A stretch of DNA of 64,000 nucleotides, from the NCBI RefSeq assembly GCF_013342145.1, contig NZ_JABUQZ010000001.1, positions 558,001 to 622,000 of the forward strand, read 5' to 3'. Positions 63,260 to 64,000 of the stretch are shown here, piece by piece. Position 1 is the stretch's first letter. Each line of letters opens with the position of its first letter. Under the pieces are notes generated by a model. That model saw only the letters and a list, made by a program, of their open reading frames with translations, ran no database searches and was not told the origin of the DNA. This stretch comes from Haloterrigena gelatinilytica (lineage in GTDB: Archaea > Halobacteriota > Halobacteria > Halobacteriales > Natrialbaceae). The translations under genes and the position numbers were made by a program.

Positions 63260-63646
63260 ATGAGCGACGAAACCGAGTACGACGAGCTCCCGCTGGTCTA
63301 CTCCTGTTCGGGCTGCTCGAGCGCCGCACAGCTGGCGAACGATCTGGCGATCTCCCTCGACCGGGACGGCGTCGCCGAGATGTCCTGTATCGCCGGCGTC
63401 GGCGGCGGCGTGGCGCCGCTGGTCGACACCGCGACCTCGGGCCGGCCGATCGTCGCGATCGACGGCTGCCCGCTCGAGTGTACGAAACGGTGTCTCGATC
63501 GCCACGACGTCGCGCCCGACCGCCACTACATGCTCGCGGAACACGGCGTGGCGAAGGAGTACCACACCGACTACGACGACGAGGCGGCCGAGCGGTTGCG
63601 CCGCAAGCTGGCCTCGGAGATCGAGACCCTCGAGGGAACGGCCTGA
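63260..63646 (+). CDS. DGC-domain putative zinc-binding protein
   Basis: A 128-residue protein: LPLVYSCSGCSSAAQLANDLAISLDRDGVAEMSCIAGVGGGVAPLV gives the first CxxC and a third Cys; IVAIDGCPLECTKRCLDRHDVAPDRHYML gives DGC and two more Cys, the arrangement that names the DGC family. Members are predicted to bind zinc or an Fe-S cluster and often sit near molybdopterin or nitrogen/sulfur-redox genes. The neighbour with a molybdopterin domain fits that pattern, but a joint function is inference. Confidence 0.82.
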   Translation: MSDETEYDELPLVYSCSGCSSAAQLANDLAISLDRDGVAEMSCIAGVGGGVAPLVDTATSGRPIVAIDGCPLECTKRCLDRHDVAPDRHYMLAEHGVAKEYHTDYDDEAAERLRRKLASEIETLEGTA

Positions 63647-63761
63647 GTCACCGCCCGTGGCGATCTAGTCAGGAACGAAACCATTTCCGATGTGCGGACG
63701 CGTCGCACGGCTCCGGTCGTTTGAACACGCTTTTAAGGGGGGCAACGCTACAGACGTAGTA
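63647..63761 (+). promoter_or_regulatory. Promoter region of the L7Ae leader
   Basis: GCTTTTAAGG places a TATA-like TTTTAA at 63731-63736, predicting a start around 63758-63763, just at the first base pairs of the leader structure. Confidence 0.55.
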
Positions 63762-63968
63762 CACCCTACGCGGGGTTGATGATGCTCCTAGCCTCACAGG
63801 ACTTCCGCCGAAGCTACTTCGGCCAGGGGTGGCCATACGGGCTGACGGAACTGTTTGCGGCGTCCGACACGACGGTCGTCGGACGCCCGCTCACGACGTC
63901 CGTCTGCCCGTATCGTGCCCCGAATGGCAGGGGAGCGCGAGCCCACGTGTAGGAGAGGTGAACAACCA
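63762..63968 (+). ncRNA. Long structured 5' leader upstream of ribosomal protein L7Ae
   Basis: Pairings read by eye: P1 CCTACGCG (63765-63772) with CGTGTAGG (63946-63953), extended by GGG (63773-63775) with CCC (63942-63944). P2 is GCTCC (63784-63788) with GGAGC (63932-63936). Hairpin A is GCCGAAG-CTA-CTTCGGC (63807-63823). A long rod pairs ATACGGGC-T-GACGGA (63835-63849) with TCCGTC-T-GCCCGTAT (63899-63913), topped by GCGG/CCGC and CGTCCGAC/GTCGGACG. Between P1 and P2, TTGATGAT faces GCGAG, a kink-turn-like loop. The 3' strand of P1 touches the Shine-Dalgarno GGAGAGGTGA (63952-63961). Regulation by L7Ae is inference. Confidence 0.65.
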
Positions 63969-64000
63969 ATGTCAGTCTACGTCAACACCGACATCCCAGC
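63969..64000 (+). CDS. rpl7ae: Ribosomal protein L7Ae, first codons (runs off the window)
   Basis: Only MSVYVNTDIPA is present. It matches the haloarchaeal L7Ae N-terminus (x-VYV-xx-D-x-PA), from memory. L7Ae is a ribosomal protein and also the kink-turn-binding core of box C/D and H/ACA particles. The ATG follows a strong Shine-Dalgarno with about 7 nt spacing and a leader of about 200 nt, unusual among the mostly leaderless genes here. Confidence 0.75.
   Translation, partial: MSVYVNTDIP

What the first reader, a model, noticed from the sequence alone, without database searches (positions are those of the whole stretch)
63762..63968. Long folded leader before L7Ae with a kink-turn-like loop next to the Shine-Dalgarno
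A TATA-like box (63731-63736) predicts a transcript start almost exactly at the first base of a closed structure of about 190 nt. Its closing helix P1 (63765-63775 with 63942-63953) ends on the first bases of the Shine-Dalgarno. Right above P1 an internal loop has TTGATGAT on one side and GCGAG on the other, able to form G-A/A-G pairs as in kink-turns, though not with perfect consensus (loop length and opposite strand deviate). L7Ae is the kink-turn-binding protein, and control of its own mRNA through such a motif has been reported in Sulfolobus. If L7Ae bound here it would tighten P1 and hide the ribosome site. The long GC-rich rod above (63835-63913) is extra and looks like none of the RNAs I know.
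Basis: partly seen in the sequence, partly recalled or inferred. Interest (0 to 1): 0.78.

Follow-up and report, generated by a model that had tools for sequence, protein, structure and literature searches.

The report
Haloarchaeal L7Ae mRNA kink-turn leader
The stretch before the ribosomal-protein gene L7Ae is a folded RNA switch, conserved in nearly all salt-loving archaea, built around a kink-turn of the kind that the L7Ae protein grips, so the protein most likely turns down its own production.

Summary
The 5' leader of l7ae (predicted start ~63760, ATG 63969) forms a closed structure (z = -5.8). A covariance model built from a sequence-only alignment finds it in 384 of 391 Halobacteria genomes (at least 376 at E <= 0.001) and in none of about 204 phylum genomes outside the class. 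P1 and P2 covary strongly: in a tree-aware count the top five of 3126 column pairs are proposed pairs. The loop between them has an invariant U-GA on one strand and GA (rarely AA) on the other, the kink-turn core. The deepest haloarchaeal families and other archaea carry a short local kink-turn hairpin at the same place. So this is an expanded version of the known l7ae autoregulatory kink-turn (Daume 2017; Huang 2019), with a domain of about 40-150 nt between the two kink-turn strands. The GC-rich rod (63835-63913) is a recent, dispensable insertion found in 2 of 6 genomes of the genus. An apical RGGA loop is invariant and unexplained; it is the most novel part. L7Ae binding and repression are inferred, not shown. 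P1 is predicted to be stable without protein and does not cover the whole Shine-Dalgarno, so the exact blocking step is open.

The parts
63731..63736 (+). TATA box (TTTTAA)
   Evidence: box-to-ACA distance 28-31 nt in 89 of 92 haloarchaeal leaders
63761..63763 (+). conserved ACA at the predicted transcript start
   Evidence: first three model columns: A 91, C 90, A 86 of 92; fixed distance to the TATA box
63765..63775 (+). P1 (C-helix of the kink-turn), 5' strand
   Evidence: 97.0% of cells paired, 9 of 11 pairs with a change on both sides in 93 sequences
63942..63953 (+). P1, 3' strand, with bulged A63945; its end lies next to the Shine-Dalgarno
63776..63783 (+). Kt-b strand UUGAUGAU: extra U76, U77 facing G41, bulge GAU (78-80), G81-A82, 3b = U83
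   Evidence: U-GA invariant in 92/92 leaders
63937..63941 (+). Kt-n strand GCGAG: 3n = C38, G39-A40, -1n = G41
   Evidence: A invariant 92/92, G in 86/92 with A in the other 6
63784..63793 (+). P2 (NC-helix), 5' strand GCUCCUAGCC
   Evidence: 9 of 10 P2 pairs with a change on both sides
63926..63936 (+). P2, 3' strand GGCAGGGGAGC
63798..63801 (+). AGGA of the apical loop (RGGA across the class), role unknown
   Evidence: G 92/92, G 90/92, A 91/92
63807..63823 (+). P3, variable hairpin GCCGAAG-CUA-CUUCGGC
   Evidence: compensatory changes within the family alignment; absent in many other families
63826..63921 (+). P4, variable hairpin (base GGGG 63826-63829 with CCCC 63918-63921), here enlarged by the rod
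   Evidence: compensatory changes in P4 within the family
63835..63913 (+). rod: 79-nt near-perfect hairpin inserted in the P4 loop; lineage-specific
   Evidence: present in 2 of 6 genomes of the genus, single copy in this genome; fold z -6.2
63956..63961 (+). Shine-Dalgarno core AGGUGA
   Evidence: sequence; 7 nt before the ATG
63969..64000 (+). start of l7ae (continues beyond the window; followed by rps28e, rpl24e and ndk by my reading of the ORFs)
   Evidence: TIGR03677 eL8_ribo, 172 bits against cut-off 134.6; ORFs; only PF01248 match in the genome

Best explanation
The leader is a cis-regulatory RNA that lets L7Ae repress translation of its own mRNA. Two strands that lie about 150 nt apart in this genome are brought together by P1 and P2 and form a kink-turn (bulge GAU, sheared G-A/A-G pairs, C-helix = P1, NC-helix = P2). 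Free L7Ae, in excess over rRNA and guide RNAs, binds this kink-turn; the kinked RNA-protein complex with a locked P1 directly before the Shine-Dalgarno blocks the 30S subunit. Shown here: the structure, its covariation, the invariant kink-turn core, its class-wide single-copy association with l7ae, and the homologous position and motif in outgroup leaders. Inferred: L7Ae binding, the direction of the effect, and steric block plus P1 locking as the mechanism. The domain between the two kink-turn strands (P2 top, RGGA loop, optional P3/P4) is a haloarchaeal addition to the short hairpin of other archaea.
For: P1/P2 covariation: 93.7% of cells paired, 18 of 21 pairs with changes on both sides, 0 of 500 shuffles as high, every slid register far lower; same result on the sequence-only alignment. 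On a tree of the downstream genes the five best of 3126 column pairs, and six of the best seven, are P1/P2 pairs. U-GA 92/92 and A 92/92 in the internal loop. Class search: 384/391 genomes, 83/86 genera; second hits only at E 0.05-1; none outside the class. Deep families and other archaeal classes carry short kink-turn hairpins with the same motif next to the SD. Published: L7Ae represses through l7ae 5' UTR kink-turns, the 50 bp before Haloferax l7ae conferred down-regulation in E. coli, and an upstream Kt-b strand was noted for Haloferax (PMC5539422); such kink-turns have a GAU bulge and 3b:3n outside the ion-folding rule (PMC6298567), as here (3b = U, 3n = C).
Against: No binding or expression data for a haloarchaeal L7Ae. 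Most leaders (78 of 92), including this one, have one nucleotide more than the standard 3-nt bulge, and most have an unmatched n-side base. P1 is predicted to form without protein (pairing probability about 1), unlike the published model in which the leader is unstructured until L7Ae binds. In this genome P1 ends before the SD core. The invariant RGGA loop is not explained by kink-turn binding.
Confidence: 0.78

Rival explanations
1. The leader is a composite regulator: besides L7Ae on the kink-turn, the RGGA apical domain binds a second ligand (protein, RNA or small molecule) or serves as a ribosome standby site, and regulation depends on both.
For: RGGA is as invariant as the kink-turn core (G 92/92, G 90/92, A 91/92) although it lies in a loop and the neighbouring P3/P4 come and go; leaders outside the class lack this domain.
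Against: No partner is known; RGGA may only be a tertiary contact that stabilises the fold. ANGGA is the CsrA motif in bacteria (own knowledge), but archaea are not known to have CsrA.
Confidence: 0.3
2. The structure is a fixed expression element, for example for mRNA stability or 30S recruitment, not controlled by L7Ae; the kink-turn-like loop is only structural.
For: The fold is predicted to be very stable on its own.
Against: Match of the invariant loop to the L7Ae binding motif, in front of l7ae only; published autoregulation in other archaea.
Confidence: 0.12
3. A box C/D guide RNA is embedded in the leader (C box UUGAUGA, D box CUGA at 63842-63845), as the weak Rfam sR51 match suggests.
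For: sR51 match at 16.2 bits.
Against: Far below its gathering score of 38; the CUGA lies in the rod, which nearly all relatives lack.
Confidence: 0.01
4. A leader peptide starting at AUGAUG in the Kt-b strand controls l7ae.
For: 83 of 92 leaders have an ATG there.
Against: Nine leaders have no ATG; the distance to the stop is scattered from 6 to 57 codons or there is none within the leader; conservation follows base pairing.
Confidence: 0.02

Closest known systems
Archaeal l7ae 5' UTR kink-turn autoregulation (Daume 2017, PMC5539422; Huang 2019, PMC6298567)
   Same: [quoted passage not shown] Daume already listed the Haloferax leader and an upstream Kt-b strand
   Different: Here the two strands are joined over a conserved domain (leader 82-208 nt, median 123) with P1 of 11 bp, P2 of 10 bp and an invariant RGGA loop; most leaders have one extra U; the fold is predicted to be stable without protein
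Ribosomal leaders of Eckert and Weinberg 2020 (PMC7247131), including a Halobacteria S15 leader
   Same: Covariation-supported ribosomal-protein leaders in Halobacteria
   Different: Their 20 new motifs include no L7Ae leader from Halobacteria; different gene and structure
Box C/D kink-turn (C box RUGAUGA / D box CUGA)
   Same: b strand (U)UGAUGA, L7Ae as the expected ligand
   Different: n strand is GCGA, UCGA, CUGA and others; no guide sequences; no D box at a conserved place
Kt-23 of Thelohania solenopsae (A at 2n; PMC3985660, abstract only)
   Same: Six of 92 haloarchaeal leaders have A at the 2n position
   Different: rRNA context

Membership tests
l7ae 5' UTR kink-turn regulatory element | Lies in the 5' UTR directly before l7ae | tested here: met
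   92 of 95 l7ae leaders match the model; predicted start 208 nt before the ATG in this genome
l7ae 5' UTR kink-turn regulatory element | Tandem sheared G-A and A-G pairs | tested here: met
   b strand GA 92/92; n strand GA 86/92, AA 6/92
l7ae 5' UTR kink-turn regulatory element | 3-nt bulge before the G-A pairs | tested here: inconclusive
   14/92 leaders have exactly 3 nt; this one has GAU plus one extra U
l7ae 5' UTR kink-turn regulatory element | Base-paired C and NC helices | tested here: met
   P1 and P2 covary
l7ae 5' UTR kink-turn regulatory element | SD next to the kink-turn structure | tested here: met
   P1 ends at 63953, SD core from 63956; in most other families P1 pairs the first two G of GGAGG
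l7ae 5' UTR kink-turn regulatory element | Unfolded without L7Ae, folds on binding | tested here: inconclusive
   3b = U, 3n = C predict no ion-induced kinking by the rule in PMC6298567, but P1/P2 are predicted stable
l7ae 5' UTR kink-turn regulatory element | Binds L7Ae and lowers translation | not testable with these tools
   needs experiment; only the 50-bp Haloferax upstream region was tested in print, with Sulfolobus L7Ae in E. coli
Box C/D sRNA | Conserved C and D boxes with guide between | tested here: not met
   D box only in the lineage-specific rod
Known Rfam family | Match above the gathering score | tested here: not met
   none for the window region or seven related loci

The most novel reading that the evidence does not exclude
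Haloarchaea turned the simple L7Ae kink-turn hairpin into a two-input leader: the kink-turn for L7Ae plus an apical RGGA domain that senses or recruits a second partner, a class-wide structured regulator in organisms thought to do largely without structured leaders.
Probability: 0.3. Interest if true: 0.75.

Novelty: new variant of a known kind. Interest (0 to 1): 0.55.

Why it matters
[quoted passage not shown] This is a class-wide, single-copy, covariation-supported leader on a core ribosomal gene, with named residues to mutate in a genetically tractable model (Haloferax volcanii). It shows how a short protein-binding hairpin was elaborated into a larger RNA, and it exposes an invariant loop of unknown role.

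Tried and rejected
Box C/D guide RNA (weak Rfam match; D box only in the rod). Leader peptide (no conserved frame). The rod as functional core (2 of 6 genomes of the genus, single copy). The rod as a repeated mobile element (only short weak matches elsewhere in the genus). Pairing of the AGGA loop with UCCU in P2: leaders that lack UCCU (for example L091, L096) keep RGGA. Further copies before other genes: second model matches have E 0.05-1 and look like chance. Known Rfam family: none. Splicing-endonuclease (bulge-helix-bulge) processing: the Haloferax study lists one mRNA substrate, HVO_1309, not l7ae.

Full report
Observation. The 214 nt before l7ae fold at -112.8 kcal/mol against -84.5 +/- 4.9 for shuffles. 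l7ae starts at 63969, runs out of the window and is a clear L7Ae (TIGR03677, 172 bits; the only PF01248 match in the genome). The ORFs that follow were read as rps28e, rpl24e and ndk (my reading).

Comparison. I fetched the region before l7ae from about 140 genomes of the class. They share one leader: ACA(C/G)CCUGYGCGGGG-UUGAUGAU-GCUCCUAGCC-N-CAGGA-(variable)-GGCAGGGGAGC-GC-GA-GCCCACGYRCAGG-AGGUGA. A sequence-only MAFFT alignment of 23 leaders (A2) was scored with my structure: 92.3% of cells paired and 14 of 21 pairs with double changes, against at most 57% and 8 for slid registers; no shuffle reached the paired or covariation values. A covariance model from it (R1) finds the window at 63761-63960 with 75.1 bits and 92 of 95 fetched leaders; the three misses are the deepest families f5 and f11. 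On the resulting 93-row alignment (one row is a chance second hit at E 0.96) P1 is 97.0% paired with 9 of 11 pairs changed on both sides, and P2 has 9 of 10 such pairs. That alignment was fitted to the model, so I also made a tree of the downstream genes of 44 loci and counted branches on which both columns change and stay paired: the best five of 3126 column pairs, and six of the best seven, are P1/P2 pairs.

Range. In whole genomes the model matches 384 of 391 Halobacteria (E <= 1; by my count of the table at least 376 at E <= 0.001), in 83 of 86 genera, nearly always once. Second matches reach only E 0.05-1 and look like chance. In a draw of 247 genomes of the phylum the 41 genomes that matched are all Halobacteria; none of the roughly 204 genomes outside the class matched. 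This genome itself scored only E 0.018 in the whole-genome search, which aligned just the 5' part up to the rod; the window search gives 4.9e-17.

Kink-turn. Between P1 and P2 the b strand reads (Y)(N)NRU-GA and the n strand GA. U, G and A of the b strand are invariant in 92 of 92, A of the n strand in 92 of 92, G in 86 (A in the other six). Fourteen leaders have exactly a 3-nt bulge (CGU, CAU, UGU, GGU); 78 have one more, as here (U plus GAU). Bases that are invariant but not Watson-Crick paired, between two covarying helices, are what a kink-turn predicts. Huang et al. describe the l7ae UTR kink-turns of other archaea as a GAU bulge followed by G-A/A-G and give the 3b:3n rule; here 3b = U and 3n = C, so ion-driven kinking is not predicted while L7Ae-driven kinking is. 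The deepest haloarchaeal families have textbook short hairpins, for example CGU-AAU-GA-CGCGC-loop-GCGCG-GA-ACG directly before the SD (L181, L182), and leaders of other classes read for example UUGAUGA-AGGGC-loop-GCCCU-GA-AGGAGG (L187) (partly by eye). The long haloarchaeal leader is thus best seen as that hairpin with an enlarged NC arm.

Variable parts. P3 and P4 are optional hairpins; within the family they show compensatory changes, in other families they are absent. The rod is an insertion in the loop of P4: L003 and L005 of the same genus have the short GGGGUGCCCAGUGCCCC form and L006 a close variant; the rod occurs in 2 of 6 genomes and once in this genome. It is not conserved and probably not needed. 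In contrast the RGGA in the apical loop is invariant and I have no explanation for it.

Promoter. The TATA box precedes the conserved ACA by 28-31 nt in 89 of 92 leaders, which puts the predicted start near 63760 and gives leaders of 82-208 nt.

Mechanism. Best supported is translational autoregulation by L7Ae. The structure, the kink-turn core and the gene association are shown; binding and repression are inferred from the motif and from published work on other archaea, which included the 50 bp before Haloferax l7ae in an E. coli reporter and noted an upstream Kt-b strand. How binding blocks initiation is open: P1 is predicted closed without protein and covers at most the first bases of the SD, so a kinked, protein-locked complex that hinders 30S docking is more likely than simple hiding of the SD.

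Prior art. The kind of regulation is known. A 2020 survey of ribosomal leaders reports a Halobacteria S15 leader but lists no haloarchaeal L7Ae leader among its new motifs; Rfam has no match. Supplements could not be read, so the haloarchaeal entries in Daume's Text S1 were not checked. I file it as a new variant of a known kind.

Noticed in passing
63798-63801 and alignment A3 columns 45-48: Invariant RGGA in the apical loop of the leader in nine families of Halobacteria (not in f5/f11); no partner found.
   Followed up: partly
63835-63913; L001, L002, L004 against L003, L005, L006: 79-nt near-perfect hairpin inserted in the P4 loop in two of six genomes of the genus, single copy in this genome.
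   Followed up: yes
L179-L182: The deepest haloarchaeal families keep a short canonical kink-turn hairpin before l7ae instead of the long leader.
   Followed up: partly
L046, L057, L061, L104, L107, L043: Family f2 leaders have AA instead of GA in the n strand, a non-standard kink-turn with A at 2n.
   Followed up: partly
L071, L072, L075, L108: Other genera carry their own large insertions in the same variable hairpins.
   Followed up: no
L108 and genomes G183, G277, G337, G360 (genus g73): Leader diverged or missed by the model in genomes of this genus; by eye L108 still has P1 and the kink-turn strands.
   Followed up: no
63263-63646: Small cysteine-rich protein (CSGCSSAAQLAND) directly upstream; no NCBIfam match; resembles DGC-type zinc-binding proteins from memory.
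   Followed up: no
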